Shown in pieces: positions 6,657-30,053 of a DNA stretch of 64,000 nt. Numbering within the stretch: the first letter of the stretch is position 1; every line of letters starts with the position of its first letter. The translations under genes and the position numbers were made by a program. The stretch comes from Euzebya rosea (GTDB lineage: Bacteria; Actinomycetota; Nitriliruptoria; Euzebyales; Euzebyaceae). The notes under the pieces were generated by a model. The model was given only the letters and a program-made list of their open reading frames with translations, searched no databases and was not told where the DNA came from. The DNA is taken from positions 124,001-188,000 of the forward strand of contig NZ_PGDQ01000010.1 of NCBI RefSeq assembly GCF_003073135.1. Direction: 5' to 3'.

Positions 6657-7559
6657 ATGCCGATCACCGCCGAGATGCCGTACCGCAAGCGGACCGTGGA
6701 CGTCGAGGGCGTCGCCATGGCCACCGTCGACGAGGGGGAGGGGTCGGCCGTCGTGTTCCTGCACGGCAACCCGACGTCGAGCTACCTGTGGCGCAACGTC
6801 ATGCCGCACGTCGCGGACCTCGGCCGGATCGTCGCGCCGGACCTGGTCGGCATGGGCGACTCGGCCCGGCTGCCGGACTCCGGCCCGGATCGCTACACCT
6901 TCGTCGAGCACCGTCGGTACCTCGACGGCCTGCTGGACGCGCTGGACCTGGGTGACCGGATCACGCTGGTCATCCACGACTGGGGCAGCGCGCTGGGCTT
7001 CGACTGGGCCCGCCGCCACCCCGAGCGGGTCGAGGGCATCTGCTACACCGAGGCCATCTGCGGTCCGGTGTCCTTCGACGACTGGCCCGAGGCGGCGCAG
7101 CGGGTGTTCGGCGGTATGCGCAGCGAGGCGGGGGAGGAGATGGTGCTGGACAAGAACGTCTTCGTCGAGCGCATCCTCCCCTCCTCGATCATGCGTGACC
7201 TGACGGAGGAGGAGATGGCGGCCTACCGTGCCCCGTTTGCCGACCCGGGCGAGGCGCGCCGGCCGACGCTGACGTGGCCCCGGCAGATCCCCTTCGACGG
7301 CGAGCCGGCTGACACCGCGGAGATCATCGACGCCTACGCCACGTGGCTGCCGACCACCGACGACCTGCCGAAGCTGTACCTCCACGCCGAGCCGGGATTC
7401 CTGTCCCAGGTCTACGCCGACCGCTGTCGCACGTGGCCCAACCAGGTCGAGTCGACGATCAGCGGCATCCACTTCGTGCAGGAGGACTCGCCGGACGAGA
7501 TCGGCGCGGCGCTGCGGGACTGGGTGCTCGACATACGTGCAGGTCAGATGCCTGCTTGA
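6657..7559 (+). CDS. Haloalkane dehalogenase (alpha/beta hydrolase, HLD-II-like)
   Basis: A 300-aa cytoplasmic enzyme expected to hydrolyse a carbon-halogen bond to an alcohol plus halide. Counting from the ATG at 6657, the catalytic set falls at Asn38 and Trp109 (halide-stabilising), Asp108 (nucleophile, in HDWGSALGFDW), Glu132 (charge relay, in YTEAIC) and His272 (in SGIHFVQED). These are the numbers used for LinB of the HLD-II group. An upstream extension to 6525 is open but antisense to the DUF6457 gene. It is the last gene before the accessory island and shows no operon partner. Confidence 0.93.
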   Translation: MPITAEMPYRKRTVDVEGVAMATVDEGEGSAVVFLHGNPTSSYLWRNVMPHVADLGRIVAPDLVGMGDSARLPDSGPDRYTFVEHRRYLDGLLDALDLGDRITLVIHDWGSALGFDWARRHPERVEGICYTEAICGPVSFDDWPEAAQRVFGGMRSEAGEEMVLDKNVFVERILPSSIMRDLTEEEMAAYRAPFADPGEARRPTLTWPRQIPFDGEPADTAEIIDAYATWLPTTDDLPKLYLHAEPGFLSQVYADRCRTWPNQVESTISGIHFVQEDSPDEIGAALRDWVLDIRAGQMPA

Positions 7560-14480: not shown

Positions 14481-14864
14481 TCAGCCGGGTGTTCGTGCCA
14501 TCGCGATCGCCCCGGCCATCGGTCGGACATGCGTGAGCGAGATCGTGACGAGCACACCCAGCGAACGGGCCCGGCGTGCGACCTCGCCGTGTAATGCGAC
14601 GGCTGTGTCCGGGCCGCCTCCGACGACCTCCACGTCAAGGGGTTCCAGGCCCGGCATCCCTAGGCACTTGTGGACGGCCTCCTTGGCCGCCAGACGCGCG
14701 GCCAGGCATTGACCGGGATCCGGTTCGCCACGGCTGTAGGCGACCTCGCCGGCATGGAACAACTCTTCCAGCAGTCGTGGGTTGCGCTTCAGCTTCTCGG
14801 CCAATCGGTCCGGCTCAACGAGGTCGATCCCCACGTACGGCACTGTCGGCAATTCCTGCATCAT
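14481..14864 (-). CDS. acpS: Holo-ACP synthase (4'-phosphopantetheinyl transferase, AcpS type)
   Basis: A 127-aa AcpS-type enzyme that transfers phosphopantetheine from CoA to the serine of an acyl carrier protein. Visible family motifs are VGIDLVEPDRL (Mg-binding Asp region), FHAGEVAYSR, the ARLAAKEAVHKCLG helix and the C-terminal ISLTHVRPMAGAIAMA. The gene diverges from an ACP gene with only 53 bases between, so this is most likely a dedicated modifying enzyme for that carrier. The AT-rich spacer (reads TATAGGATAATCAAGC before the ATG) suggests a -10 box so close that the mRNA could be leaderless. Confidence 0.88.
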   Translation of the reverse strand: MMQELPTVPYVGIDLVEPDRLAEKLKRNPRLLEELFHAGEVAYSRGEPDPGQCLAARLAAKEAVHKCLGMPGLEPLDVEVVGGGPDTAVALHGEVARRARSLGVLVTISLTHVRPMAGAIAMARTPG

Positions 14865-14917
14865 GCTTGATTATCCTATACGATGTCGACTATTCCGACA
14901 CACTGGAGGTCCCCGTG
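14865..14917. promoter_or_regulatory. Divergent AT-rich promoter between acpS and the ACP operon
   Basis: These 53 bases are among the most AT-rich of the island. They include TTATCCTATACGATG (plus strand), whose complement offers TANNNT-type -10 boxes towards acpS. GGAGG lies 8 bases before the ACP start at 14918. The XRE-family regulator encoded two genes downstream is the obvious candidate to bind here, by analogy with other XRE/ImmA pairs. Confidence 0.5.
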
Positions 14918-15205
14918 ATGCCAACCGCGAGCCCCGCCGCCCCTCCCGCCACATGGACCCCGACGGCCCTGCAGGCCGTGGTCCTGGATCTGCTTGCAGA
15001 ACTCCTGATGGAGGACCGCGAGGAGTTGGAGCAACGGCTCTCAGTGACCCCTGCCATGCCCGTGGACTCCTTGGACATGATGGATATTATCGCCGGGTTC
15101 AAGCAGCGGACGGGCCTGTCGGTCCACAAGGGCCGCCTCCGCAGGCACCACATGCGGTCGGTCAGCGCGTTTGTCGGGTTCGTCAGCAGCCGGTCCGGCA
15201 CGTGA
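14918..15205 (+). CDS. Acyl carrier protein
   Basis: A 95-aa single-domain carrier protein. After a Pro/Ala-rich 12-residue lead, the domain contains the phosphopantetheine site VDSLDMMDII with Ser51, and a preceding four-helix-type segment. The last 30 residues are unusually basic (HKGRLRRHHMRSVSAF), unlike acidic fatty-acid ACPs. First gene of a seven-gene operon; GGAGG precedes the ATG, and the stop overlaps the next start (GTGA). It probably carries an acyl or aminoacyl group as a thioester for the enzymes downstream; the cargo is unknown. Confidence 0.82.
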   Translation: MPTASPAAPPATWTPTALQAVVLDLLAELLMEDREELEQRLSVTPAMPVDSLDMMDIIAGFKQRTGLSVHKGRLRRHHMRSVSAFVGFVSSRSGT

Positions 15206-15573
15206 CCGGCACCGACGACGGGACGCCTGATGAGGCGGCAGCCCTAGCACGACGCCTGAAGCAGGCTCGTGAGTTCCTCAACCTGTCCCAGCAGTTCGTG
15301 GCCGAGCAGACCGGAATCAGCCGGACCGCCGTGTCCGACATCGAACGCGGCGCACGTCGCGTGGAGAGCCTGGAGCTGAAGCGCCTCGCGCGGCTGTACC
15401 GGATGCCGGTCGACTACTTCCTCGGCGGCGGATCGGTCGAGGGCGCCGCCGAGGCGACCAGCACGGCGCTCGCCCGCGCAGCGGGCGATCTGGACGAGGA
15501 GGCGCAGGAGGAAGTCATCCGCTTCGCGCTGTTTCTCAGGAACTACCGGACCCCAGGGGAGGGCGGCTCGTGA
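15202..15573 (+). CDS. XRE-family transcriptional regulator
   Basis: A 123-aa protein with an N-terminal HTH_XRE domain (ARRLKQAREFLNLSQQFVAEQTGISRTAVSDIERGARRVESLELKRLARLYRMP, split over residues about 14-68) and a C-terminal helical tail. GTG at 15202 overlaps the ACP stop; its own stop overlaps the ImmA gene start (GTGA). In elements such as ICEBs1 an XRE repressor (ImmR) is cleaved by the adjacent ImmA peptidase; the same pairing is inferred here. Confidence 0.88.
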   Translation: MTGTDDGTPDEAAALARRLKQAREFLNLSQQFVAEQTGISRTAVSDIERGARRVESLELKRLARLYRMPVDYFLGGGSVEGAAEATSTALARAAGDLDEEAQEEVIRFALFLRNYRTPGEGGS

Positions 15574-16586
15574 CGACCTGGGAGGAGGCCAACCGCAGGG
15601 CCGGTGTCATGGCTGGGGAATGGCACGCCGAACTCGGCATCGACCTGTCCCGCCCGGTCGACCCGTTCGATGCCATCCGCCGTCTCGGCATCATCCTGGC
15701 CTTCGGCAGGCTCGGAAGGACGTCCGGCCTGTACCTTCCGGCGGGACCGGCTCAACCCCAGCCGGGGATCCTGCTCCACGTCGGGCACCCTCGCACACGG
15801 CAACGCTACTCCGCGGCGCACGAGCTCGGCCACCACGTGTTCGGGCACGCAATGGGAGTCGACGGCGACCTCGAACGGGCCCGCCGGAAGGAAACGGGCT
15901 GGACGACTGAGGAGAAGGAGGCCGAAGCGTTCGGCGCATGGTTCCTGATGCCCCGTCGGCTCGTGAGAACGGGGCTGCGCACCCTCGGCATCGACACCCC
16001 GAGGGATCCGTTGGACGTCTATGCGCTGTCGCTGTGGTTGGGGACCAGCTACACCGCCACCGCCCACCAGCTCGCAACCGTGCGGATCGTCGGTCGTGAC
16101 GACGCGTCGAGGTGGGCCACAGTCCCACCCCGCACCATCAAGCGCACGATCGCCGGGACGATGGTGCCCGACATCATGCGAAACGACGTCCTGTGGGTCG
16201 ACGTGCGACGGGCGGCTCACGAGGTCAGCGGGCGGCCAGGGGACAGGATCGTGGTAACCGTCGACGACGTGCCTAGCAGCGGGATCACTTGGAGGGTCGC
16301 CGAACGATCGGTGTTGCCCCTGGCGGCGGACTCCTTCATGGATGACTGGGATGCCGACATCCACCTCGTCCACGACGACGGTGAACTGGCCGGCGGGACC
16401 TATCCGCGGTCCTTCGCACTCGACGTCCCCCCTGGCATCGGGGTGGGCCCGCACCCGCTTGAGCTGATCCGCGACCGGCCCTTCGACGAAAGCGAACCCG
16501 TTGAACGCGTCAGGATTCCCGTGACGATCGATCCCGGTCTGAGCGGCCTACAGCTCCCCGAGGCTGCAATGGCCATGCACTCCTGA
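15570..16586 (+). CDS. ImmA/IrrE-family metallopeptidase fused to a chagasin-like cysteine-protease inhibitor domain
   Basis: A 338-aa two-domain protein. The N-terminal domain is an ImmA/IrrE zinc peptidase with AAHELGHHVFGH (HELGH at 84-88) and the downstream EAEAFGAWFLMP block. Residues about 205-320 look like a chagasin (inhibitor family I42) beta-sandwich: an NPTTGYxW-like loop PSSGITW (235-241), a GG loop (275-276) and an RPW-like loop RPF (303-305), in the right order. Chagasins block papain-family peptidases, and the next gene, one base downstream, encodes one. The fold assignment of the second domain is by motif order, not by search. Confidence 0.8.
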   Translation: MTTWEEANRRAGVMAGEWHAELGIDLSRPVDPFDAIRRLGIILAFGRLGRTSGLYLPAGPAQPQPGILLHVGHPRTRQRYSAAHELGHHVFGHAMGVDGDLERARRKETGWTTEEKEAEAFGAWFLMPRRLVRTGLRTLGIDTPRDPLDVYALSLWLGTSYTATAHQLATVRIVGRDDASRWATVPPRTIKRTIAGTMVPDIMRNDVLWVDVRRAAHEVSGRPGDRIVVTVDDVPSSGITWRVAERSVLPLAADSFMDDWDADIHLVHDDGELAGGTYPRSFALDVPPGIGVGPHPLELIRDRPFDESEPVERVRIPVTIDPGLSGLQLPEAAMAMHS

Positions 16587-16587
16587 C

Positions 16588-17202
16588 ATGGACCACCGAT
16601 CAGCACAGACACCGGTCCGCGACCAAGGGTCCCGGCCGACGTGCGTCGGGTTCGCCGTGGCTGCGGCCCATGAATGGCATTCGGGTGCGGACCAGGTCAT
16701 GTCGCCTGAGGACGTGATGTGGGCGGGCCACCAGATCGGAGGGATCCCTGGCCGCGAGGACATCAGCGTCCAGTGGGCCCTGGAAGGACTCGACGTCCAC
16801 GACCTCACCACGGAGCACGCGTGGCCGTACGGACGCCCCACCTGGCAGCACGGACGACCGCACGAGGCCCGTGACCCCGCCAACCGGGCCTCGGTCCCGG
16901 AATGGCGTCGCGCCGCCCCCTGCGACTTCGGCACCGTCGCCGACAGCGCGACCGATGGCAAGCCCGTCATCCTCACCCTCCGTCTCGTCCCCGCCGCCTG
17001 GTACACCGACGGGCCTGTGGACGCCCCTGCGGGCCTGAGGACGTTCGGCAGTCACGCCGTCCTCGTTGTCGGCACCCAGGCGAAGTCGCTGGTGGTCAAG
17101 AACTCCTGGGGCGACGGCTGGCAGACCGGCGGCTACGGCCTCGTCACCCGCGAGTACGTCGACGCCTATGGCGTCGTGGCACACACCCTGTTTGGAGCCT
17201 GA
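16588..17202 (+). CDS. Papain-like cysteine peptidase (family C1), cytoplasmic
   Basis: A 204-aa protease with the full papain catalytic set: Gln13 (oxyanion) and Cys19 in VRDQGSRPTCVGFA, His156 in GSHAVLVVG, and Asn172 in VKNSWGDGW. It has no signal peptide and no propeptide (Cys19 is near the start), so it would be active on folding unless inhibited. The chagasin-like domain encoded directly upstream is the likely inhibitor. Two bases separate its stop from the thymidylate-synthase-like gene. The substrate may be an operon protein or a host target; a transpeptidase-type role is an alternative. Confidence 0.85.
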   Translation: MDHRSAQTPVRDQGSRPTCVGFAVAAAHEWHSGADQVMSPEDVMWAGHQIGGIPGREDISVQWALEGLDVHDLTTEHAWPYGRPTWQHGRPHEARDPANRASVPEWRRAAPCDFGTVADSATDGKPVILTLRLVPAAWYTDGPVDAPAGLRTFGSHAVLVVGTQAKSLVVKNSWGDGWQTGGYGLVTREYVDAYGVVAHTLFGA

Positions 17203-17204
17203 TC

Positions 17205-17978
17205 ATGACCGACCGCTACCTCGAGGCCGACAACGTCTCCACCGGCTGGCTGGCCGCCACCAGGCTGCTCGCGTCATCCGGCAACCCTTGGAAGCACGTT
17301 CACCTCATCCTTCGAATCGCCGACCCGACGGCCGAGACACCCGAGATCCGCACGGCGGCCCAGGACCTCATCGACACCGTCAACCGGCGGCGATCGGAGC
17401 AGGACCACCTGCCACACATCGACACGACCCGCAACACCATCTTCCCGGTGGCCTTCACCGGACGCACCGACGGCCCCGAGGACCTCGCGGCCTACTACCG
17501 CGACCGGTACAGAGATATTCAGCGGTACAGAGGGAACCGGCTCGGCACGTACTTCGGTCGGATCGTGGCGTATCCCACACCCGGTGGTAAGTCGATTGAC
17601 CAGCTCTCCAACACCGTGGAGAAGCTCCGCTCATCCATCACCAAGAACCAGAACAGGACGTCCCGGTACGAGATCGCGATCTACGCGCCGGGCAGGGACC
17701 GCAATATGTGGATGAGTTTCCCCTGTCTGGCCCACGTGTCGCTGCACTACCACGCGGGGCGGTTGCACATGCAGGCCATCTACCGCAACGAATCGCTGGT
17801 CCCGCGGGCCTACGGCAACTACCTCGGGCTCGGTCAGCTGCTGGCCTACATCGCCGACCACTCCGGCGCCGAGGTGGGGGAGCTCCTGATGACGCTCGGG
17901 CATGTCGAGATGGGCGTCAACATCACGCCGGTCCGCGAGATGCTGAGGGGTCTAGCCGACCCTCCCGAAGCGGCCTGA
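17205..17978 (+). CDS. Thymidylate-synthase-superfamily protein (possible dUMP hydroxymethylase)
   Basis: A 257-aa ThyA-fold protein. Counting from the active cysteine (Cys174, in SFPCLAHVSL), Arg194 follows at +20 and Asn205 at +31, the same spacing as Cys146, Arg166 and Asn177 in E. coli ThyA. The N-terminal segments NTIFPVAF and NRLGTYFGRI also match. Asn205 indicates a uracil rather than cytosine base. The residues after Cys (Leu for His) and the RSxD motif (RNES) differ, so the reaction is probably not plain dTMP synthesis. Family relatives hydroxymethylate dUMP or dCMP in phages. Next gene: an HMUDK_hel-like protein. Confidence 0.78.
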   Translation: MTDRYLEADNVSTGWLAATRLLASSGNPWKHVHLILRIADPTAETPEIRTAAQDLIDTVNRRRSEQDHLPHIDTTRNTIFPVAFTGRTDGPEDLAAYYRDRYRDIQRYRGNRLGTYFGRIVAYPTPGGKSIDQLSNTVEKLRSSITKNQNRTSRYEIAIYAPGRDRNMWMSFPCLAHVSLHYHAGRLHMQAIYRNESLVPRAYGNYLGLGQLLAYIADHSGAEVGELLMTLGHVEMGVNITPVREMLRGLADPPEAA

Positions 17979-18030: not shown

Positions 18031-19056
18031 ATGGAGCCCACCCCGCGACCCGACGTTTACGACACCTACTGGCGGTTCGCCGCGGAACGCCAGCGGATCT
18101 TCATGCAGCGCACGTACGGCCGTCCAGGCCCCTGGACCGACGATCCGATCCTCACCGAGTACAAGTTCTGCAACACCTTCAGGGCGTCCGACCGCGTCTC
18201 GCAGTACCTCATCCGCGATGTTATCCACGGCGAACGAGGCCGCGGGTTGCCCGCGGAGGACGTGTTCCTCCGCATCGTTCTGTTCCGTCTCTTCTCCAAG
18301 GAACGGACATGGCAGCGGTTGGAGGAGGCCACGGGCGGCGTGCGGCGGAGCACCCTGGACACCGCCCTCCTGGGTGAGGTCCTGGACCGCACCCGCCGCG
18401 ACGGTGCCATCTACACCTCGGCGTTCATCCTCTGCGCCCACGACGCCTACGGCCACTCCTCCAAGCACCGCAACCACCTCGAGCTCGTGCAGCGCATGTT
18501 CGCGCCCGGCGGCCTCGGGGGAAGGCTCGCACGGGCCCGCGACCTCGGAGAGGTCGTCGCGCGGCTGGCGGAATGGCCGATGATCGGACCGTTCATGAGC
18601 TACCAACTGGCGGTGGACCTGAACTACAGCGGCGAGCTCGACTTCGACGAGGACGACTACACCGTCGCCGGCCCCGGTGCCGTCCGAGGCCTGAACAAGG
18701 TCTTCGCCGACTTCGGGTCATATACGCCCTCCCAGCTGATCATGCGGATGGTCGACCGTCAGGAGGAGGAGTTCGACCGCCTCGGTCTGACGTTCGGCGG
18801 ACTGTTCGGCCGTCGACTCCACGCCATCGACTGCCAGGGTCTGTTCTGCGAAACCGACAAGTACTCCCGCGCCGCGTTCCCGGACCTGAAGAGCAACCGC
18901 GTCCGCATCAAGCAGCGCTACACCCGCAGCGGACCGCTCGAACCGCCTTTCTACCCGCCGAAGTGGGGCCTCAACGACAAGCTCCCCGCACCTGCCGACG
19001 GGTCACCCGCCGGGGTGCAGACCCCCTTGTTCACGACCGAACCGGTCCCGGTGTGA
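18031..19056 (+). CDS. HMUDK_hel / aGPT-PPlase-like DNA-base hypermodification protein
   Basis: A 341-aa all-helical protein matching, by remembered consensus, the family called 5-hmdU DNA kinase helical domain (HMUDK_hel) or alpha-glutamyl/putrescinyl-thymine pyrophosphorylase. Key block near the N-terminus: YWRFAAERQRIFMQRTYG, then PWTDDPILTEYKFCN, then RASDRVSQYLIRDVI. Further on are FMSYQLAVDLNYS (residues about 190-202) and a late GLFCETDKYSR. In phages such proteins act on 5-hydroxymethyluracil in DNA when building hypermodified thymines. No P-loop kinase domain is fused. It follows the ThyA-like gene after 52 bases, a pairing that supports a base-modification role. Confidence 0.75.
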   Translation: MEPTPRPDVYDTYWRFAAERQRIFMQRTYGRPGPWTDDPILTEYKFCNTFRASDRVSQYLIRDVIHGERGRGLPAEDVFLRIVLFRLFSKERTWQRLEEATGGVRRSTLDTALLGEVLDRTRRDGAIYTSAFILCAHDAYGHSSKHRNHLELVQRMFAPGGLGGRLARARDLGEVVARLAEWPMIGPFMSYQLAVDLNYSGELDFDEDDYTVAGPGAVRGLNKVFADFGSYTPSQLIMRMVDRQEEEFDRLGLTFGGLFGRRLHAIDCQGLFCETDKYSRAAFPDLKSNRVRIKQRYTRSGPLEPPFYPPKWGLNDKLPAPADGSPAGVQTPLFTTEPVPV

Positions 19057-19114: not shown

Positions 19115-20077
19115 GTGGACGGCGTGACCGGGTTCTCCGCGGAGCTCTGCCGGCGGACCCTCGAACGAGCGGCGGCCTTCGAAGAGGACCAGCGGATCGC
19201 CGTCCTCGGTGCGACACCGGCCGGCCGCGCGGTGACCGCCGCCCTTGTCCGGGTCGGCCTCGGCGACCTTGTCACGGGACTGTTCGACGACGAAGGGATC
19301 GCGGTGACGTCGATGGCCGACCTGCCAGGGGCGGCACCGACCCTGCTGGTGATCGCCCACGACGACGCCAAGGAGGCCTGGCTCCTGCGGGCCCGGGACC
19401 TGCTCGACGGCCAACGCCCACCCCCGGACGTCGTCATCGCCGGGACCGGCCATCTCGCCTTCAACGACGAACGGTACGCCCGGCTCGACGCCCCGGCCCT
19501 CGTCCCGTCCTACGCGACCGGATCACCGCACACACGCCACCACATCTACAACTGCCTGACCGCAGCCGCCACCGCGGGGTTGGACGGCGCGATCGTTGAG
19601 TTCGGAGCATTCAAAGGCGGCACCACCGCATGGATGGCCCGCGTCGCATCGGATCTGGGCATCGACGGGCCCGTGATCGGATTCGACACCTGGGACGGCT
19701 TCCCCGCCCGACGGTCCTTGCTGGACCTGTACGAACACCCGCGCTGCGTGTTCGGAGACCTTGACGCCGTCAGGGCCTACACCGCACCGTACGGTGTCGA
19801 GCTCGTCGCCGGTGACATCACCGAGACCTTCCACAGGTTGGCCGGCATGCCATTGCTGCTGTCGTTCTTCGACACCGACAACTACAGCCCGGCACGCGCC
19901 GCCCTGGAACTCTGTGCCGATCAGACCGTCGTGGGCGGCTCGATCGTGTTAGACCACGTCGCGACCCTTCCCGATTACGTCGACACCGTCGGGGAAAGAA
20001 TCGCCGCGGCCGAGGTCCTCGACGACAGACCGTTCCTGCACCTGCACGACACCGGGGTCTACACGCGGATCCGCTGA
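19115..20077 (+). CDS. TylF/MycF-type SAM-dependent methyltransferase
   Basis: A 320-aa protein (GTG 19115; GTG 19124 is possible; no good ribosome binding site). Residues 1-130 are a Rossmann-like region (QRIAVLGATPAGRAVTAALV). The C-terminal part is the TylF-type methyltransferase: GAIVEFGAFKGGTTAWMARVA (SAM-binding loop), VIGFDTWDGFPARRS, and the metal-site-like SFFDTDNYSPARAALE. TylF relatives O-methylate sugars in antibiotics. In this operon it may methylate the group added to the nucleotide or the ACP cargo. Its stop lies five bases from the convergent MazG gene. Confidence 0.82.
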   Translation: MDGVTGFSAELCRRTLERAAAFEEDQRIAVLGATPAGRAVTAALVRVGLGDLVTGLFDDEGIAVTSMADLPGAAPTLLVIAHDDAKEAWLLRARDLLDGQRPPPDVVIAGTGHLAFNDERYARLDAPALVPSYATGSPHTRHHIYNCLTAAATAGLDGAIVEFGAFKGGTTAWMARVASDLGIDGPVIGFDTWDGFPARRSLLDLYEHPRCVFGDLDAVRAYTAPYGVELVAGDITETFHRLAGMPLLLSFFDTDNYSPARAALELCADQTVVGGSIVLDHVATLPDYVDTVGERIAAAEVLDDRPFLHLHDTGVYTRIR

Positions 20078-20082
20078 CCCGG

Positions 20083-20955
20083 TCAGGCAGACGAGTACTC
20101 GATCGTCCCGATCTGCAGATCCAGCCTGAGGACCCCCCCGTGACCGTCGCGCAACGCACGCCAGATCTCGAAGGACCGCAGAATCGCCCGCTCCCACTGG
20201 GACGCCGTCCTGTCCCGGACCTCCAAGCCGGCCGTCAGCCGACGGATGGTCGTGAGCAGGGAGAAATCGACGTGCTCGACGTCCGCCAGATAGCCGACGT
20301 CGGCGGCGTAGTCGAACGCGAACGCCGCGATCGCCTCCTCGATCACCATGGCCCGTCCAGCGTCCTCCACCTCCCTGACGTACGGGACGCTGTCACGCCG
20401 CCGATTGAGGAACCGTCGCACCACGGGTGACCATCCCAGGAGGGCGGCATAGGTGAAGTGGAACGCGTCGTGATACCGATAGCCGTCGTTAGCATACGAG
20501 TTGTCGGTCAGCCGGTCCCCGAGCTGCCGGCCCCCCTCGAAGGCCCGGACCTCGACCTTGCCGTCATCCGCCAGTGTCTCCTCGAAGCGGACCTCCAACC
20601 GCCTGGGCAGCTGCTCCTCCACCGGGTATGCCTCGTCCAACAGCGGGGGCTGGCTGGTCTGGGTGGGCCAACGCCCCGCGACCTTGTGTAGGTTTGCCAA
20701 CGCGATCTTGTCCATCGACAGGCCAAGCTTGCTCGCGACGTTGGCGCAGTACCAAAGGATGTCGCCGATCTCGTCGGCCATCTCGCTTGCGAACAACTCG
20801 TAGGCGTCTCCGTCACGGAGCCACTTCTTCACATGGCGGGTAAGGGAACCGACCTCCGAAGCCAACCCGACGATCGGGAAGAGCACTGCGGTCGTGTCCT
20901 CTCCGGGGCGCTGGTCGGTCGCCACCGCCCTCGTCTGGTACTCGCTCAACTCCAT
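20083..20955 (-). CDS. MazG-like nucleoside triphosphate pyrophosphohydrolase with C-terminal extension
   Basis: A 290-aa protein (ATG 20955 after AGGAGG). The first 105 residues form a MazG-type helical NTP-PPase: LFPIVGLASEVGSLTRHVKKWLRD and EMADEIGDILWYCANVASKLGL supply the paired EExxE/ExxD-like acidic residues. The remaining 185 residues are a helical, His/Asp-containing domain (YRYHDAFHFTYAALLGWSPVV) seen in larger MazG-like proteins of unknown role. MazG enzymes remove the pyrophosphate from unwanted NTPs or dNTPs. Converging on the modification operon, it could clear unmodified or modified dNTPs. Confidence 0.78.
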   Translation of the reverse strand: MELSEYQTRAVATDQRPGEDTTAVLFPIVGLASEVGSLTRHVKKWLRDGDAYELFASEMADEIGDILWYCANVASKLGLSMDKIALANLHKVAGRWPTQTSQPPLLDEAYPVEEQLPRRLEVRFEETLADDGKVEVRAFEGGRQLGDRLTDNSYANDGYRYHDAFHFTYAALLGWSPVVRRFLNRRRDSVPYVREVEDAGRAMVIEEAIAAFAFDYAADVGYLADVEHVDFSLLTTIRRLTAGLEVRDRTASQWERAILRSFEIWRALRDGHGGVLRLDLQIGTIEYSSA

Positions 20956-23360: not shown

Positions 23361-24173
23361 TCATGGCGCGGTTCTCCTGCTGTGCGAGCAGAAGTCGGTG
23401 CTCCAGGCCAGGTGTCTGCCGTCCTGTCGTGCGATCAGGATCGTCACCTGCCGGCTGGATCGATAGCCGGAGCCGACGATCTCGTGGTCGACGGCCGACT
23501 CGGCACAGCGGGCACTGAACTCGATCGGGACCTCGCGATCCACCGGCAACGCCGACAGCTGCGCCTGGGACTCAAGGCCGACGCAGAGTTCGTCGAGCTG
23601 ATCTCGTCGCATGCCCACCACCCCGCGTGGCCGGCCGAAGGCCGGTGACAGGAACCGCCACAGGCGGACGGGCCGCCCCACACGTCGGAGGCGGACGGCA
23701 ACGGCGGAGAGGGTCACGCGGTACGCCCTTGCCATTGCCTGGAAGTCTCCGATCGACAACGCGTCGCGGCGGGCCAGGGCCCGCATGTCGTCGGTCGGCA
23801 ACAACATCGCTCCCGCGACGGCGTCGCACAGTCGCTCCAGGTCCCACCCACCCGCCGGAAGCGTGGAGCCGTGGACGCGGGCCCGCTCGACCAGGACGTG
23901 GCCGAGTTCGTGAGCGAACGTGAATCGCAGGCGGGATTCGCTTGCCAGTTCTTCCCTCAGGTACACCACCGGTAGCCCCTCCTCCCAGCGGGTGAGACCT
24001 CGCCAGGCCTGCGATGCCGGCGCCTGACGCACTCGGACCCGAAGCTCACGGGCCACTGCGTCCAGATCCACAGCTCTTGGTGCCCCCCCGAGGGTCGGAC
24101 GGTGGAGGCCGGCAAGCAGTTCGTCGGCTCGTCGGGCTGTGGACACCGACCATGGGCGGCCTCTACCGGCCAC
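23361..24173 (-). CDS. ImmA/IrrE-family metallopeptidase
   Basis: A 270-aa zinc peptidase with HELGH at residues 88-92 (RFTFAHELGHVLVERA) and the third-ligand region LCDAVAGAMLLP. The C-terminal 100 residues form an extra domain, different from the chagasin-like domain of the other ImmA protein in this island. GTG at 24173 overlaps the end of the upstream gene by 11 bases, so the two are a unit. The upstream protein is the natural candidate for its cleavage target or regulator. Confidence 0.85.
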   Translation of the reverse strand: MAGRGRPWSVSTARRADELLAGLHRPTLGGAPRAVDLDAVARELRVRVRQAPASQAWRGLTRWEEGLPVVYLREELASESRLRFTFAHELGHVLVERARVHGSTLPAGGWDLERLCDAVAGAMLLPTDDMRALARRDALSIGDFQAMARAYRVTLSAVAVRLRRVGRPVRLWRFLSPAFGRPRGVVGMRRDQLDELCVGLESQAQLSALPVDREVPIEFSARCAESAVDHEIVGSGYRSSRQVTILIARQDGRHLAWSTDFCSHSRRTAP

Positions 24174-25377
24174 GCAGGATCTCCTCGTGGAGATTGGCCC
24201 AGTCCGCTGTGCTCACCAGCATCAGGTGCTGTGCGGCCTCCCCGGTGACCAAGCCGAGGCCCAGACGGGCGGCACGTTCGAGCATCTGCGCCCGGATCGG
24301 CTGGGGGACCGGCTCGGCCGCGCAGTAGCTGTCGAAGGTCGAGCGCGCCGGGTCGGGGAGCAGTGAGGCGAGGGGGGTGGGCGCGATCGTGCTGTCAGGA
24401 TGCAACTGGATCCCTAGGAGGACCTCGAGTGCTCGCAGCTGTTCAGCGGTCAGCGAGGCGAGTGCCAGTGGGTGCACGGCGGCGACGGTTGCCTGCTCCC
24501 GGGTCAGCGGCAGGCTGTCGGGCCACTCGGCATCGCCTCCTCGCAGGGACAGCGCGCGGCCGAGCGCGTCTGCAGGCCCCTGCCACACCCGGCGCTTCGA
24601 AGCGCGCCGGTTCGCGGTCAGGACCAGACGCTGCCTGAGCTGGTGGAGGCGCTCGCCGAGCAGCCTGGGAAGTTCGGGCGGTGCGTCGTAGACGAGCGGT
24701 GGGAGGGTGGCGCCAACCTTGGGGTTCGCGTACAGGTAGGACAGCGGCCCGACGTGCTGTCGGACGATGGGCAGGATCAGGGCGCCGATGCCGCGCAGCC
24801 GCTGGACCTGGGCTCCGACGCCCTGGGACCCTGGCACGACGAAGACCGCGACGAGGTCGGCCTCCCACGTGATGTCGCACCCGGAGTGGTCCTCGTGCAA
24901 CGGGTGGCCCACGATGTCGAGCCATTCCAGCCGGGTGTTGGACACCAGGTCGCTGATGTAGTCCTCCACGATCCGGCGCTCCTCGCCGGCCTGGTTGGTG
25001 TCGGCCTGGGCGAACAGCGCCCTCGGCCGCACCGCCGTCGGCGAGACCGCCTCCCACAGCGTCAGCTGTCCGGCGCGCCCCGACGGCCGTTCGTCGTCAT
25101 CGGACTGTTCGACCGCGGACATGTCGAACGGCAGGTCGTGTTCCCGACAGAACACTTGGGCAACCCCGAGGGCGAGCTCATCCGTTCGCGGTCCGGCCCC
25201 CATGGCTTCGACCAAGCCGCGAACCACCAGTTGGACGTAGTCGCGTGCGCCGATCTCCCGCCCCTCCAGGGGATGCGCCACCCTCCGCACCCGATCCGGG
25301 CGAAGGTTGTGGGCAAAGCCGACCTCGTCGGCGACCCAGGCGGCGGTCCGCTCCGTCCACCCAGGTTCAACGATCAT
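24163..25377 (-). CDS. Hypothetical protein, partner of ImmA/IrrE peptidase
   Basis: A 404-aa soluble protein. ATG at 25377 is preferred because the 13 codons before it run into an operator-like repeat array. The N-terminal 100 residues are helical and may bind DNA (TERTAAWVADEVGFAHNLRPDRVRRVAHPL), though no standard HTH is certain. The centre includes ILPIVRQHVGPLSYLYANPKVG. No family recognised. In other ImmA/IrrE systems the adjacent gene encodes the cleaved repressor, so a regulatory role is inferred. Confidence 0.55.
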   Translation of the reverse strand: MIVEPGWTERTAAWVADEVGFAHNLRPDRVRRVAHPLEGREIGARDYVQLVVRGLVEAMGAGPRTDELALGVAQVFCREHDLPFDMSAVEQSDDDERPSGRAGQLTLWEAVSPTAVRPRALFAQADTNQAGEERRIVEDYISDLVSNTRLEWLDIVGHPLHEDHSGCDITWEADLVAVFVVPGSQGVGAQVQRLRGIGALILPIVRQHVGPLSYLYANPKVGATLPPLVYDAPPELPRLLGERLHQLRQRLVLTANRRASKRRVWQGPADALGRALSLRGGDAEWPDSLPLTREQATVAAVHPLALASLTAEQLRALEVLLGIQLHPDSTIAPTPLASLLPDPARSTFDSYCAAEPVPQPIRAQMLERAARLGLGLVTGEAAQHLMLVSTADWANLHEEILRGR

Positions 25378-25392
25378 GACCCACAGCAAACC

Positions 25393-25423
25393 ATGTGCGT
25401 ACGATGTGCGCAACATGTGCGTA
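25393..25423. repeat. Three 11-bp-phased direct repeats (operator-like)
   Basis: ATGTGCGTA, ATGTGCGCA and ATGTGCGTA start at 25393, 25404 and 25415, an exact 11-base spacing that places each copy on the same face of the helix. They lie 16-46 bases before the start codon of the 404-aa gene and upstream of the divergent RHH gene, a classic arrangement for cooperative repressor binding. Confidence 0.65.
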
Positions 25424-26333: not shown

Positions 26334-29300
26334 TCAGCCGTCGGGGGAGACGAGGGCCGCGAGCAGCGCGGACCGTCGTGATCCAGACCGGTCGAGAAGT
26401 CGGTCGTCGACGAGTTCGCTGATGGTGATCGCGAGGTCGACCGCCCCGGCTGAGCGGATGACGGGGTCCTGCCGGGTCAGGTAGATCGTCGTCGTCGATG
26501 GGTGTGCGTGTCCGAGGTGGCGTTGGACGGCGAGCAGGTCCCTGGTGATCTCGGCGTGGTAAATCGCCCCGGACGGTCGGAGGCTCCGGGGGAGCAGCCC
26601 GGCCAGGTCCGGCACGTCCTCACACATCCGGTCCCACGCTGCACGTCGTTCGTGGTAGCGGCTCGAGTAGTCGTGAGCGGAACCGCGTCCGGCCCACATC
26701 AGTCGGCCGTCGCCCGCCGCGGCGTGGCGGGCGAGATCCAGGAGGCGGCGGGGGTCCAGGGCGTCGTCGGTGTGCGGCATCCACACCGTGTAGGGCCGGA
26801 ACCCGCCCCGCTTTGTGGCACCACGGACGTCGAGTCGGACCGCGTCGGGGTGGGCGTGGAGATCCTCGGCGTGGATCGCGTCGATGCTGCCCGGCCGCAA
26901 TGCACCGGCGAACCCCGCCACGAGGAACCCGATCGTGGTGGGGTCCGACGCGGCGTCGGCTAGACCGAGGAACACCTCCCGTGTGGCCACCGGCGGCTGC
27001 CGGCGCTCCACAACGACTCCGCGGTCGCGTTCCTCCTCGATGGCCCTTGCGACGGTCTGACGTGCGGGGCCGAGCCAGGCGCTGGCGATGCTCGGCGACG
27101 GCGCGAGCCGCCCGAGGAGGAACAGGTCACGCTCGAGTGCCGTCGCAGCCGTCGATTTGTTGCACAGCTCGTCCATCACCCAACGGTGGATCCCCTCCGG
27201 GGTGCGGGTGATGATCGACACGGTGTCGGGGTCGGCGTCGGGGTGCAGGGCGGCGACGGCCTCCTGGACTCGCTGCCCCACCGCCGCCGACGACCTCGGC
27301 CGCGAGTGGCCGGGGAGCAGCTCGGTGTCGATGAGGAGTCGGCGGACGGCCTCGACCGCCCCCGGCAGGTCATTCGGGCCGATGAGGGAGAAGGGCTCGG
27401 AGGACCGTGTGACCGCGATGTACTCGCTGGTCCCGGTCATCTCCCGGCGCACTCTCGTCTGCCACGCGTCCAGGTCGATGCCGGGGTCGGCCAGGTCGCC
27501 GGCGTCGACGTAGGTGGCGGTGTGCCCGGCCTGCAGCTCGTGGCCGAGGAGTACGACGACCTCCGACCAGCCGAGCCGGTGGTAGGTCAGCGTCGCCGCG
27601 GTCCGCCGGAACGTGCCGGAGGTGATCGAGGAGGGGTGCCAGCCGAGCCGGGTGCACCAGCGGGCGAGGGTCTTGCGGTACGCCGACTCGCTGAGCAGGT
27701 CGCTGAGCCGCCGAGCGTCGACGGGGATGTGCGGTGCGAGAGCGGCGGCGGCGCAGGCCGGGCACAGGTGGTGGTCGGGGGTGTGGTCGATGCGGGTCCA
27801 CCGCTGCCCGGTCTTGGTCGGTGTGCGGGTGGGGGAGTGGTGGCCGTCCGCGGCGCCGCGGATCTGTGCGACGGAGACCCCGAGCGGGTCCATGCCGCGC
27901 ATCGCCTGGACGTGCGCGAGCCGGCCGGCGAAGACAACGGCGAGCGTTCGCAGTCGGGCGTCCGCCAGCACGACGGCGGGGTCGTCGTACGCCTGGCGTC
28001 GGTGGCGCCAGGGCCGCTGTGCGACACCGGCGGCCACCACCTGGGCGAGGCCGGCCGCGGACAGGCCGGCTGCTACGACCACGGTGTCGTCCAGGGTTGT
28101 GCCGCCGACGCGGACGGTCGGGCTGTCGACGATGATGTTGCTGCGGTCGAGCAGATGGGGGGCCAGACCGTGCGCGTGGAGCACGGGGTGGAGCAGGGCG
28201 GCGGCCGCGGCGGTCTGCCAGGTCGTCGGGGCGAACCAGGCCGGGTGGTCGGCGAGCAACCGTGAGACGGCGACCAGGGGGGCGGCGAAGGCCTTGGTGG
28301 TCCGCCGATTCCGCGGAGGTCGGGGTCCGATCGCCCTGACGACCGGCCGTACGAGCCGGGTGACGGGCTGGCGGTCCTGGCGGGCGCACATGGCGTTGAG
28401 GTCGGTGACGATGGTGTCGGCGAGGGCGTGGACCTCCGCGCCGGCAAGGTGTTCGGCGTGCAGGAACGCCGCGACGTGCCACTCCTCGACGGTGCCCAGG
28501 TCCAGCCCCGCCGCGGCCGCCCAGCGGCTGAAGCGCAATGACCGCCAGGACTGCAGGGCGGCCGCGTCGGCGTCTCGTCGCCGACGTCCCGTGGGCCGAC
28601 CGGCCCCGGTGAGCCCGACCCTGGCGAGGTGGGTGCGAAGGGTGTTGACCGTGACGCCGAGCCGGTCCGCGATCTCGGCGTGGGTGTGCCCCTCGGCGAT
28701 GAGGTCGGCAAGTTCACCGCGTGTGGAGGTCACCGGGACCGCGGTCGCGGCGAGGGTCAGGCCGAGCCGTCGCAGCGCGCGGTTGGTCTCCGCCCCCGTC
28801 GTGCCCAGCCTCGCAGCGACGTCCGCCCGGGTGCCGCCGGCGGCACGGGCCGCGGCGACCGCTTCGCGGACGGCGTCGTCTTCTGGTCGGGGTGCGGTCC
28901 ACCACCTCAACCCGGCTCCCGCCAGCCTGCGGCTGAGGGTCCCGGGGGTGATGTCGAGTTCGGTGGCGGTCGTTGTGATGGTCGCACGTCGGGCGGCGGC
29001 ACCGGCAACGATCTCGGCGAGATCGCGTTCGGCATCGTCTGGCGGGGCCCACCAGTCGACCCCGGCGGCGTCCAGCCTGTCGATGAGCACCCGGGTGGTC
29101 ACCCCGGCCCGGTGGGCCAGCCCGTGACGCGACCAGCCGCGGCGTCTGGCAAGGTCAACGGCGCCTGAGGGGTCGCCCTCGAGGTCGATCGCCAGCTCGA
29201 CGGTCGACGACCTCGGGCGGCGACCGGGGCCCCCGTCCGCGTGGTGGCTCCCGGTCCACCACTCGACGCCCGCTCGACGCAGCCTCCTGCGTACCGCGTC

Positions 29301-30053
29301 CGCGGTCGTGCCGAGCTCCTCGGCGAGCCGGGCCTGGGTCCAGCCGTTGGCCGCGGCCGTGGCGACGTGCTCCGCCCACACGGCCGGGTCGGGGGGAGGG
29401 TGGCGACGTACACCCTTCTCGTTCATCCGGTTGCGGAGCACATGGACGGTCGTGCCCAGGTGGGCGGCGAGTTGCTCGTTGGTCCAGCCCTGTTCGTTGC
29501 CGAGCGCGACCGCAGCCGCCACGTCACCGTCCCAGCCGCGGGGCACGGGCTTGGCGGCCCGTGCGGCCCTGAGCGTGGCGGACTGGTCGCGCCACCAGGC
29601 CACCCCGTCGCGGTCGAGTGCGGCGTCCAGCGTCGGGCGGGACACCCCCAGGTGCTCACACAGCCGGCCCTTGGTCCAGCCCCGCTCGGCGGCCAGGGCG
29701 ACGACGGCGGCGGCGTCGGGCACCGACCGGCCTGGCCCGCGCCGTTCCCAGACCAGGCCGAGCGCGTCCATGCGAGCGGTCAGGGTCTTGACGGTGACAC
29801 CGAGCCGCTCGGCCACCATCCGCTTGGACGCGCCCGCAGCGGCCCCCCGGGCCACGGCGGTTGTGACCTCGGCGTCGTCGGGCCGGTGGCGACGCCACGC
29901 GAGACCGTCGGCGTCGAGGGCGGCGACGAGCGCCTTGCGGTCCACCCCGAGACGCCGCGCGACTGCGGCCATCGATTCCCCCTGCGCCCGCGCGTCGGCG
30001 GCCAGCGTCGCCAGGTCCGACCCCGCCGGCAGCCCCCCGGCACTCACCGCCAC
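26334..30053 (-). CDS. Giant tyrosine recombinase: nine HTH-like repeats plus two catalytic domains
   Basis: A 1239-aa protein (GTG 30053). Residues 14-483 contain about nine tandem HTH units of 40-60 residues, each ending in a G-[VL]-x-W-like turn (GLAWRR, GLVWERR, GVAWWRD, GVEWWTG, GVDWWAP, GLRWWTA) with cores such as AVARRLGVDRKALVAALD. Two recombinase domains follow. Domain 1 (about 490-860) has GTFRRTAATLTYHRLG, LLGHELQAGHTATYVD (Tyr about 848) and a CPAC pair. Domain 2 (about 940-1210) has FAGALRPGSI (Arg about 1053), LRPSGAIYHAEI and RHLGHAHPSTTTIYL (Tyr about 1191). The repeats probably read a long DNA site. Two catalytic domains in one chain is exceptional. Confidence 0.8.
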   Translation of the reverse strand: MAVSAGGLPAGSDLATLAADARAQGESMAAVARRLGVDRKALVAALDADGLAWRRHRPDDAEVTTAVARGAAAGASKRMVAERLGVTVKTLTARMDALGLVWERRGPGRSVPDAAAVVALAAERGWTKGRLCEHLGVSRPTLDAALDRDGVAWWRDQSATLRAARAAKPVPRGWDGDVAAAVALGNEQGWTNEQLAAHLGTTVHVLRNRMNEKGVRRHPPPDPAVWAEHVATAAANGWTQARLAEELGTTADAVRRRLRRAGVEWWTGSHHADGGPGRRPRSSTVELAIDLEGDPSGAVDLARRRGWSRHGLAHRAGVTTRVLIDRLDAAGVDWWAPPDDAERDLAEIVAGAAARRATITTTATELDITPGTLSRRLAGAGLRWWTAPRPEDDAVREAVAAARAAGGTRADVAARLGTTGAETNRALRRLGLTLAATAVPVTSTRGELADLIAEGHTHAEIADRLGVTVNTLRTHLARVGLTGAGRPTGRRRRDADAAALQSWRSLRFSRWAAAAGLDLGTVEEWHVAAFLHAEHLAGAEVHALADTIVTDLNAMCARQDRQPVTRLVRPVVRAIGPRPPRNRRTTKAFAAPLVAVSRLLADHPAWFAPTTWQTAAAAALLHPVLHAHGLAPHLLDRSNIIVDSPTVRVGGTTLDDTVVVAAGLSAAGLAQVVAAGVAQRPWRHRRQAYDDPAVVLADARLRTLAVVFAGRLAHVQAMRGMDPLGVSVAQIRGAADGHHSPTRTPTKTGQRWTRIDHTPDHHLCPACAAAALAPHIPVDARRLSDLLSESAYRKTLARWCTRLGWHPSSITSGTFRRTAATLTYHRLGWSEVVVLLGHELQAGHTATYVDAGDLADPGIDLDAWQTRVRREMTGTSEYIAVTRSSEPFSLIGPNDLPGAVEAVRRLLIDTELLPGHSRPRSSAAVGQRVQEAVAALHPDADPDTVSIITRTPEGIHRWVMDELCNKSTAATALERDLFLLGRLAPSPSIASAWLGPARQTVARAIEEERDRGVVVERRQPPVATREVFLGLADAASDPTTIGFLVAGFAGALRPGSIDAIHAEDLHAHPDAVRLDVRGATKRGGFRPYTVWMPHTDDALDPRRLLDLARHAAAGDGRLMWAGRGSAHDYSSRYHERRAAWDRMCEDVPDLAGLLPRSLRPSGAIYHAEITRDLLAVQRHLGHAHPSTTTIYLTRQDPVIRSAGAVDLAITISELVDDRLLDRSGSRRSALLAALVSPDG

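What the first reader, a model, noticed from the sequence alone, without database searches (positions are those of the whole stretch)
17205..17978. Diverged thymidylate-synthase homologue keeping active-site spacing but losing flanking residues
Cys174, Arg194 and Asn205 keep the +20 and +31 spacing of E. coli ThyA Cys146, Arg166 and Asn177. However, His147 is Leu, and the RSxD motif is RNES. Asn suggests uracil specificity. The loss of flanking residues suggests altered chemistry, for example hydroxymethylation instead of methylation.
Basis: partly seen in the sequence, partly recalled or inferred. Interest (0 to 1): 0.62.

Follow-up and report, generated by a model that had tools for sequence, protein, structure and literature searches.

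The report
Thymidylate-synthase-like enzyme in a conflict operon
A distant, altered relative of the enzyme that makes the DNA building block thymidine sits in a mobile, repressor-controlled gene set shared by unrelated bacteria and an archaeon, which looks like a defence system that modifies nucleotides rather than ordinary metabolism.

Summary
In detail: the ORF at 17205-17978 (257 aa) is a true thymidylate synthase (TS) homologue (Pfam E 1.6e-6; profile-profile 98.1%, E 6.8e-14), with Cys174, Arg194, Asn205 at the stated spacing. Among 16 relatives, Cys, Asn and Tyr116 are invariant. The positions of E. coli Glu58, Asp169, His207 and Tyr209 are not kept, although equally distant TS homologues keep all four. 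His147 loss is not diagnostic.

The gene ends a tight five-gene run: acyl-carrier-like protein, XRE repressor, M78 peptidase, papain-like peptidase, TS-like. XRE and M78 lie by the TS-like gene in 16 of 16 loci from actinobacteria, proteobacteria, cyanobacteria and a haloarchaeon. Each locus has either HMUDK_hel or a uracil-DNA-glycosylase-like gene, never both. A palindromic candidate operator precedes the run. HMUDK_hel and MazG_C occur elsewhere with TIR, SLOG and Nmad2 genes.

Best reading: an inducible nucleotide-modification conflict system whose TS-like enzyme alters C5 of a uracil-type base. Hydroxymethylation is plausible but unproven; the carrier protein's role is open.

The parts
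17205..17978 (+). TS-like protein, 257 aa; Cys174, Asn205, Tyr116 invariant in the family
16588..17202 (+). papain-like (C1) peptidase, 204 aa, with the Cys, His and Asn of the catalytic triad and the NSWG motif
   Evidence: Pfam PF00112 2.1e-7; alignment of 9 loci; triad assignment recalled
15570..16586 (+). M78 (ImmA/IrrE) metallopeptidase with intact HExxH (HELGHH), 338 aa, CapP-like
   Evidence: Pfam PF06114 2.4e-10; PADLOC capP 1.2e-14
15202..15573 (+). XRE-type helix-turn-helix repressor, 123 aa, overlaps both neighbours
   Evidence: Pfam HTH_3 2.8e-12; PADLOC capH 1.4e-8 for a longer frame that contains it; coordinates
14918..15205 (+). small acyl-carrier-like protein, 95 aa, with DSL serine motif
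   Evidence: Pfam PP-binding 0.0053, 17.4 bits, under its cut-off of 20.8; Ser conserved in 17 of 17 aligned; relatives annotated as acyl carrier protein
14884..14900 (+). palindrome TGTCG-N7-CGACA, proposed operator of the XRE repressor
   Evidence: only match in 64 kb, 0.17 expected; similar site within 160 bp upstream of the carrier gene in 8 of 17 loci
14481..14864 (-). 4'-phosphopantetheinyl transferase (ACPS family), divergent from the operon
   Evidence: Pfam PF01648 1.4e-9; also in L003, L007, L009, L013, L026
18031..19056 (+). HMUDK_hel protein (PF18723, '5-hmdU DNA kinase, helical domain'), 341 aa; no P-loop kinase domain reported by Pfam
   Evidence: E 6.5e-90; relatives
19115..20077 (+). 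TylF-like methyltransferase, 320 aa; also near the TS-like gene in L003 and beside another TS and HMUDK_hel in L027
   Evidence: Pfam TylF 1.5e-6 and Methyltransf_24 7.7e-8
20083..20955 (-). MazG + MazG_C protein, 290 aa
   Evidence: Pfam MazG_C 5.6e-66 and MazG 4.6e-5

Best explanation
The gene belongs to a horizontally spread, inducible nucleotide-modification conflict (anti-invader) system. Proposed working: the XRE protein holds the operon off at the palindrome upstream of the carrier gene; on infection or DNA damage the linked M78 peptidase cuts the repressor, as CapP cuts CapH in CBASS. The TS-like enzyme then attacks C6 of a uracil-type base with Cys174, holds the base with Asn205, and puts a substituent, most likely a one-carbon hydroxymethyl group, on C5. 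The product, as nucleotide or once in DNA, is acted on by HMUDK_hel or, in other loci, a UDG-like protein, and MazG/MazG_C clears the modified nucleotide pool. Shown: homology, invariant residues, operon, gene swap, candidate operator. Inferred: repressor cleavage, the reaction, the substrate, the defence role. Unknown: what the carrier protein and papain-like peptidase do.
For: TS homology and invariant Cys/Asn/Tyr. XRE and M78 next to the TS-like gene in 16 of 16 loci; exactly one of HMUDK_hel (11) or UDG-like (5) in 16 of 16; MazG_C in 12 of 16. In 396 genomes of the phylum, full-length TS-like occurs in 3, HMUDK_hel in 5, MazG_C in 4; all 3 TS-like genomes and all 4 MazG_C genomes are among the 5 with HMUDK_hel. 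Thymidylate-kinase-like genes lie in 3 of 16 loci (L009, L013, L033; L033 confirmed by Pfam), which fits a nucleotide product. HMUDK_hel and MazG_C also lie with TIR, SLOG and Nmad2 genes and with a gene annotated as CBASS phospholipase and TIR genes. Patchy spread: 0 of 3 congeners have it, and 27 plasmid records do. DefensePredictor (PMC13092281; section 5, passages of section 8 and legends read) reports a TS and a 5-hydroxymethyluracil kinase among domains newly validated in E. coli anti-phage systems. SMUG1, a uracil-DNA glycosylase, excises 5-hmU and makes its incorporation toxic (PMC12699328, passages).
Against: No activity, structure or phage test exists for this family. Glu58 is not kept, so a folate-dependent transfer may be impossible or work differently; Arg194 is Ala in 4 of 16. 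PADLOC has no model for the TS-like, HMUDK_hel or MazG_C proteins beyond weak stray matches. I cannot tell whether the validated E. coli TS system has the same architecture. The UDG loci are clustered on the tree (2 changes), so the gene swap is about one or two events, not five. The carrier protein is unexplained and its Pfam match is under the cut-off.
Confidence: 0.5

Rival explanations
1. The TS-like protein is a catalytic enzyme with another chemistry or substrate: for example 5-hydroxylation, or action on a nucleotide not held by its 5'-phosphate, a base in DNA, or a signalling nucleotide.
For: Phosphate and 3'-OH contacts of ThyA are not kept while Cys, Asn and Tyr are. Foldseek's two best matches are TS-fold dCMP monooxygenase/hydroxylase entries 9iqc and 9iqu, but in the second look their Z (6.4, 5.8) is tied with ordinary TS and MilA, and the model is weak (pLDDT 50, pTM 0.52).
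Against: No flavin or other cofactor site was identified; thymidylate-kinase-like neighbours in 3 of 16 loci point to a free nucleotide product.
Confidence: 0.25
2. The TS fold is catalytically dead and serves as a sensor that binds uracil-type nucleotides, for example phage-derived ones.
For: Positions of Glu58, Asp169, His207, Tyr209 not kept; linkage to a repressor and a peptidase.
Against: The would-be nucleophile C174 is invariant in 16 of 16 across bacteria and an archaeon, as are N205 and Y116.
Confidence: 0.17
3. An ordinary, fast-evolving thymidylate synthase.
For: It is the only PF00303 match in the genome.
Against: Glu58 and other contacts not kept; the genome has a ThyX-family protein with an HRxxSxN-type motif; none of 3 congeners has the TS-like gene and all carry Thy1-family matches; no DHFR_1 match to recycle dihydrofolate, though that alone is uninformative since only 57 of 396 genomes of the phylum have one.
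Confidence: 0.05
4. A secondary-metabolite pathway (nucleoside natural product) that uses a carrier protein, a TS-like enzyme and a methyltransferase.
For: Phosphopantetheinyl transferase and TylF-like methyltransferase and a carrier-like protein; MilA is a TS-fold enzyme and ties among the fold matches (its role in mildiomycin is recalled).
Against: No synthase, adenylation or export genes in the shared core; the core spans bacteria and an archaeon on plasmids beside caspase, TIR, CRISPR and protein-kinase genes; TylF-like gene in only 2 of 16 TS-like loci.
Confidence: 0.08

Closest known systems
ThyA thymidylate synthase (PF00303)
   Same: Fold and C-terminal two thirds; Cys146, Asn177, Tyr94 and mostly Arg166 equivalents
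   Different: Glu58, Asp169, His207, Tyr209 and partner-subunit arginine positions not kept; sits in a mobile conflict-type operon; host has a ThyX-family protein
TS-fold pyrimidine hydroxymethylases (T4 dCMP hydroxymethylase, SPO1-type dUMP hydroxymethylase, MilA)
   Same: Same superfamily; Cys kept; MilA among the tied fold matches
   Different: Asn rather than the Asp recalled for the dCMP enzymes; Glu position not kept; no product known
Phage thymidine hypermodification systems (M6, ViI, phiW-14)
   Same: Shared PF18723 family: HMUDK_hel relatives in 378 phage records, mostly of Salmonella, Vibrio and Klebsiella phages (that ViI- and M6-like phages are among them is recalled); these phages are thought to phosphorylate 5hmdU in DNA with a 5hmdU DNA kinase (PMC6449724, passages)
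   Different: Here the domain stands alone, in a cellular operon with repressor, peptidases and carrier protein; no viral relative of the TS-like protein in three scans of viral contigs
CapH/CapP regulators of CBASS
   Same: XRE plus M78 pair; PADLOC capH and capP matches
   Different: No cyclase or Cap effector among the 18 window proteins scanned; controls a different set of genes
Nucleotide-centric conflict systems (Burroughs et al. 2015, recalled; DefensePredictor candidates)
   Same: HMUDK_hel, MazG_C, TIR, SLOG and Nmad2 company
   Different: The carrier-XRE-M78-(C1)-TS-like run was not described in any text I could read; the 2015 paper is not held, so it may be there

Membership tests
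ThyA thymidylate synthase | PF00303 homology | tested here: met
   E 1.6e-6, 27.9 bits against cut-off 24.3, residues 111-235; hhalign 98.1%
ThyA thymidylate synthase | catalytic Cys146 | tested here: met
   C174, 16 of 16
ThyA thymidylate synthase | base-reading Asn177 | tested here: met
   N205, 16 of 16
ThyA thymidylate synthase | Glu58 (role recalled) | tested here: not met
   aligned with N77; Glu in 1 of 16 there and 0 of 16 at T78; kept in 7 of 7 TS homologues
ThyA thymidylate synthase | Asp169, His207, Tyr209 (roles recalled) | tested here: not met
   1, 0 and 0 of 16; invariant in 7 of 7 TS homologues
ThyA thymidylate synthase | makes dTMP from dUMP | not testable with these tools
   needs an assay or complementation
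pyrimidine hydroxymethylase | product carries 5-hydroxymethyl | not testable with these tools
   needs LC-MS
pyrimidine hydroxymethylase | fold like MilA | tested here: inconclusive
   Z 6.5 with 5b6e, tied with ordinary TS; weak model
phage thymidine hypermodification system | PF18723 protein | tested here: met
   6.5e-90
phage thymidine hypermodification system | P-loop 5-hmdU kinase domain in that protein | tested here: not met
   only HMUDK_hel reported by Pfam at E up to 1
CapH/CapP-regulated CBASS | XRE + M78 pair with intact HExxH | tested here: met
CapH/CapP-regulated CBASS | CD-NTase next to it | tested here: not met
   none among the 18 window proteins scanned with PADLOC
nucleotide-centric conflict system | HMUDK_hel and MazG_C linked to known conflict genes | tested here: met
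   TIR, SLOG cluster2, Nmad2 in L046 and L047; genes annotated CBASS phospholipase and TIR in L031
nucleotide-centric conflict system | protects against phage | not testable with these tools
   a TS and a 5-hmdU kinase are reported in validated E. coli systems, but their architecture was not visible to me

The most novel reading that the evidence does not exclude
A cellular immune system that works by programmed base poisoning: on infection the cell makes a C5-modified uracil nucleotide with its own TS-like enzyme, it enters replicating invader DNA, and the linked UDG-like or HMUDK_hel protein turns it into breaks or a blocking adduct, while MazG/MazG_C cleans the host pool; a phosphopantetheine carrier supplies an acyl group for hypermodification or acts as a control part. 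That would be a defence built on a carrier protein and a self-made modified thymidine analogue, a kind I know no example of.
Probability: 0.17. Interest if true: 0.87.

Novelty: new variant of a known kind. Interest (0 to 1): 0.58.

Why it matters
It points to an uncharacterised TS subfamily that keeps the nucleophile but not most of the substrate contacts, tied to a regulated, often plasmid-borne gene set found in bacteria and an archaeon. If active, it would show cells, not only phages, making modified pyrimidine nucleotides as a weapon. It also gives a testable candidate operator, a defined minimal gene set, and a clean gene swap (HMUDK_hel for a UDG-like protein) that bears on what the poorly understood HMUDK_hel family does.

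Tried and rejected
Viral relatives of the TS-like protein: three scans of viral contigs with three family members and one with HMUDK_hel found none; a search with alignment A1 could not run. In the phage collection 3 records matched weakly; the one opened (L016) is a canonical-type TS, used as a control.

HMUDK_hel fold: no PDB relative by sequence (none up to E 1; best E 0.14, to aquaporins), and its model was too poor to use (pLDDT 38, pTM 0.31), so no fold search was made with it. I had thought of a helix-hairpin-helix glycosylase fold from its motif; that stays an untested recollection. The TS-like model is also weak (pLDDT 50.4, pTM 0.52); its best matches are the TS superfamily at Z 5.6-6.5, which supports the fold but settles no residue.

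DHFR argument: the host and three other TS-like hosts (G203, G255, G407) have no DHFR_1 match, which looked like support for a reaction that spares dihydrofolate; but only 57 of 396 genomes of the phylum have one, so 0 of 4 is expected and I dropped it.

E. coli homologue of the validated TS system: one DNA search with an Acinetobacter HMUDK_hel gene found nothing.

Rows dropped: of 9 genomes matched at 1e-5, six (L020-L025) match only part of the profile at E 3e-14 to 2.5e-7 and look like other TS families; they are not in the 16. Of 27 plasmid records I opened 12, chosen for taxonomic spread, not at random. L026 has a TS-like match that falls in separately annotated genes and is not counted among the 16.

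Errors and limits of mine: window 14911-15202, given as the carrier protein, is the wrong frame; the right one is 14918-15205, used. So the window's carrier match does not count; in that call the carrier was found by tblastn in 14 of the other 15 loci (not in L011, where an ORF in the same place aligns). The tblastn seeds came from some of the same loci, which therefore match themselves. The operator motif was read off these same upstream regions, so its count there is not an independent test; its rarity elsewhere is (13 matches in 384,684 bases). The per-sequence shuffles of the best inverted repeat were not significant for the window alone (54 of 60 shuffles as good).

Searches failed on a search term; some searches asked for papers that are not held (Iyer 2013, Burroughs 2015, Lee 2022, Lee 2018), so novelty against them is open. 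Literature searches listed no paper that I recognised as describing this operon.

Full report
What was checked. The ORF at 17205-17978 is as described. It matches thymidylate synthase profiles well beyond chance: PF00303 1.6e-6, PHROG 1.3e-7, and a TS alignment at 98.1% probability, E 6.8e-14, over 205 columns. C174, R194 and N205 align with E. coli C146, R166 and N177. A weak AlphaFold2 model (pLDDT 50, pTM 0.52) returns TS-superfamily structures at Z 5.6-6.5, all tied, among them ThyA, the CMP hydroxymethylase MilA and a TS-fold dCMP hydroxylase.

Residues. I aligned 16 full-length relatives and read the ThyA positions through the profile alignment. Kept in 16 of 16: C174, N205, Y116 (E. coli Tyr94), and Leu at the His147 position. 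Arg194 is kept in 12 and is Ala in 4. The Glu58 position is Asn77 or Thr78 in the window; Glu occurs in 1 of 16 and 0 of 16 there. Asp169 is kept in 1, His207 and Tyr209 in 0. The arginines that a ThyA subunit lends to its partner's phosphate site are not conserved. As a control, seven TS homologues (three of them only 19, 22 and 24% identical to E. coli ThyA) keep Glu58, Cys, Arg166, Asp169, Asn177, His207 and Tyr209 without exception, but the three distant ones lack His147. So loss of His147 says little, and loss of the other four says more. Roles of these residues are recalled from ThyA biochemistry.

Surroundings. Upstream lie, in one direction with overlaps of 4 bases or gaps of 1-2: a 95-aa acyl-carrier-like protein with a DSL serine (14918-15205), an XRE repressor (15202-15573), an M78 peptidase (15570-16586), a papain-like peptidase (16588-17202), then the TS-like gene (Pfam). 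A phosphopantetheinyl transferase gene diverges from the operon (14481-14864). Downstream are HMUDK_hel (18031-19056), a TylF-like methyltransferase (19115-20077) and, on the other strand, MazG-MazG_C (20083-20955).

Conservation. The same run recurs in a Solirubrobacterales MAG in the same order as far as HMUDK_hel, with the TylF-like gene further on (L003), on Streptomyces, alpha- and betaproteobacterial, cyanobacterial and haloarchaeal plasmids, and in two more genomes of the phylum. By tblastn, XRE and M78 are present in 16 of 16 TS-like loci, the papain-like gene in 8, MazG_C in 12, HMUDK_hel in 11, a UDG-like gene in 5; HMUDK_hel and UDG-like are never together and never both missing. 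The carrier slot is filled in all 16, and the serine is conserved in 17 of 17 aligned, L026 included. The UDG-like loci cluster on the family tree (2 changes), so the swap is one or two events. L009, L013 and L033 also have a thymidylate-kinase-like gene nearby (L033 confirmed by Pfam).

Base rates. In 396 genomes of the phylum, full-length TS-like occurs in 3, HMUDK_hel in 5, MazG_C in 4. All 3 TS-like genomes and all 4 MazG_C genomes are among the 5. By my own arithmetic, ignoring relatedness, chance is about 1e-6 and 5e-9. The two genomes with HMUDK_hel and MazG_C but no TS-like (G360, G279) have them beside SLOG-cluster2, TIR, ThsB-type TIR and Nmad2 genes; Gloeothece has them beside a gene annotated as CBASS phospholipase and TIR genes; Sinorhizobium chiapasense has TS-TylF-HMUDK_hel beside TIR genes. 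Caspase-family genes lie by L007, L012, L026 and L032 (for the annotated one by L012, Pfam found no match).

Regulation. TGTCG-N7-CGACA occurs once in the window, at 14884-14900, starting 34 bases before the carrier gene (0.17 expected in 64 kb). With one degenerate base per arm it lies within 160 bases upstream of the carrier gene in 8 of 17 loci, against 13 matches in 384,684 bases overall; a different palindrome (TAAGAT...TCTTA) does the same in 4 others, which are exactly the clade with Ala at position 194. The motif was read from these regions, so only its rarity elsewhere is a test. PADLOC places the pair nearest CapH and CapP among others. CapP derepresses some CBASS systems by degrading CapH (PMC12255303, passages).

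Host need. The host has one ThyX-family protein and no other TS; its three congeners lack the TS-like gene and have Thy1-family matches. The TS-like gene is therefore most likely accessory.

Reading. The pattern (regulated, mobile, patchy, next to conflict genes, nucleotide enzymes swapped around a constant regulator-peptidase module) fits a nucleotide-modification conflict system. DefensePredictor (section 5, and passages from section 8 and the legends, read) reports a TS and a 5-hydroxymethyluracil kinase among newly validated E. coli defence domains and lists MazG, MazG-C and UDG among predicted ones; I could not see whether the gene order matches. SMUG1 excises 5-hmU and makes incorporated 5-hmdU toxic (PMC12699328, passages), which is a precedent for poisoning by a modified uracil plus a glycosylase. 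The reaction itself is not shown. Asn205 argues for a uracil-type base; the missing Glu and phosphate contacts argue that the substrate or chemistry departs from ThyA. Hydroxymethylation is my first guess, at roughly one in three.

Novelty. No paper listed in nine searches was seen to describe this operon, but Burroughs 2015, the likeliest place, is not held. I rate it a new variant of a known kind.

Noticed in passing
window 30377-32068 (-): GT4-conflict glycosyltransferase (PF20706, 2e-93), another conflict-type gene about 10 kb from the operon.
   Followed up: no
window 23364-24173 (-): A second M78 peptidase, PADLOC capP 2.6e-19, beside a 417-aa protein (24166-25416) without Pfam match.
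   Followed up: no
window 26337-30053 (-): 1239-aa protein with several helix-turn-helix stretches and a sub-threshold phage-integrase match at its C-terminus.
   Followed up: no
L033 8919-9929: A second, canonical-type TS (PF00303 3.9e-21) follows HMUDK_hel in the same locus as the TS-like gene; L012 also has a second TS about 4 kb away.
   Followed up: partly
L020 456-1959: A methyltransferase that looks TylF-like (by eye, not scanned) directly before a partial TS homologue in another genome of the phylum, echoing the TylF-TS pairing of L027.
   Followed up: no
L026 6690-7524: TS-like match (7024-7491) falls in separately annotated hypothetical genes, followed by a dCTP-deaminase-like gene (PF22769 4.7e-16) and HMUDK_hel; the TS-like gene may be split or broken.
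   Followed up: partly
L006, L011, L012, L015 MazG_C proteins: The MazG domain of the UDG-type loci carries a long insertion, and the second Glu of the MazG ExxE motif (recalled) is mostly lost across the family.
   Followed up: no
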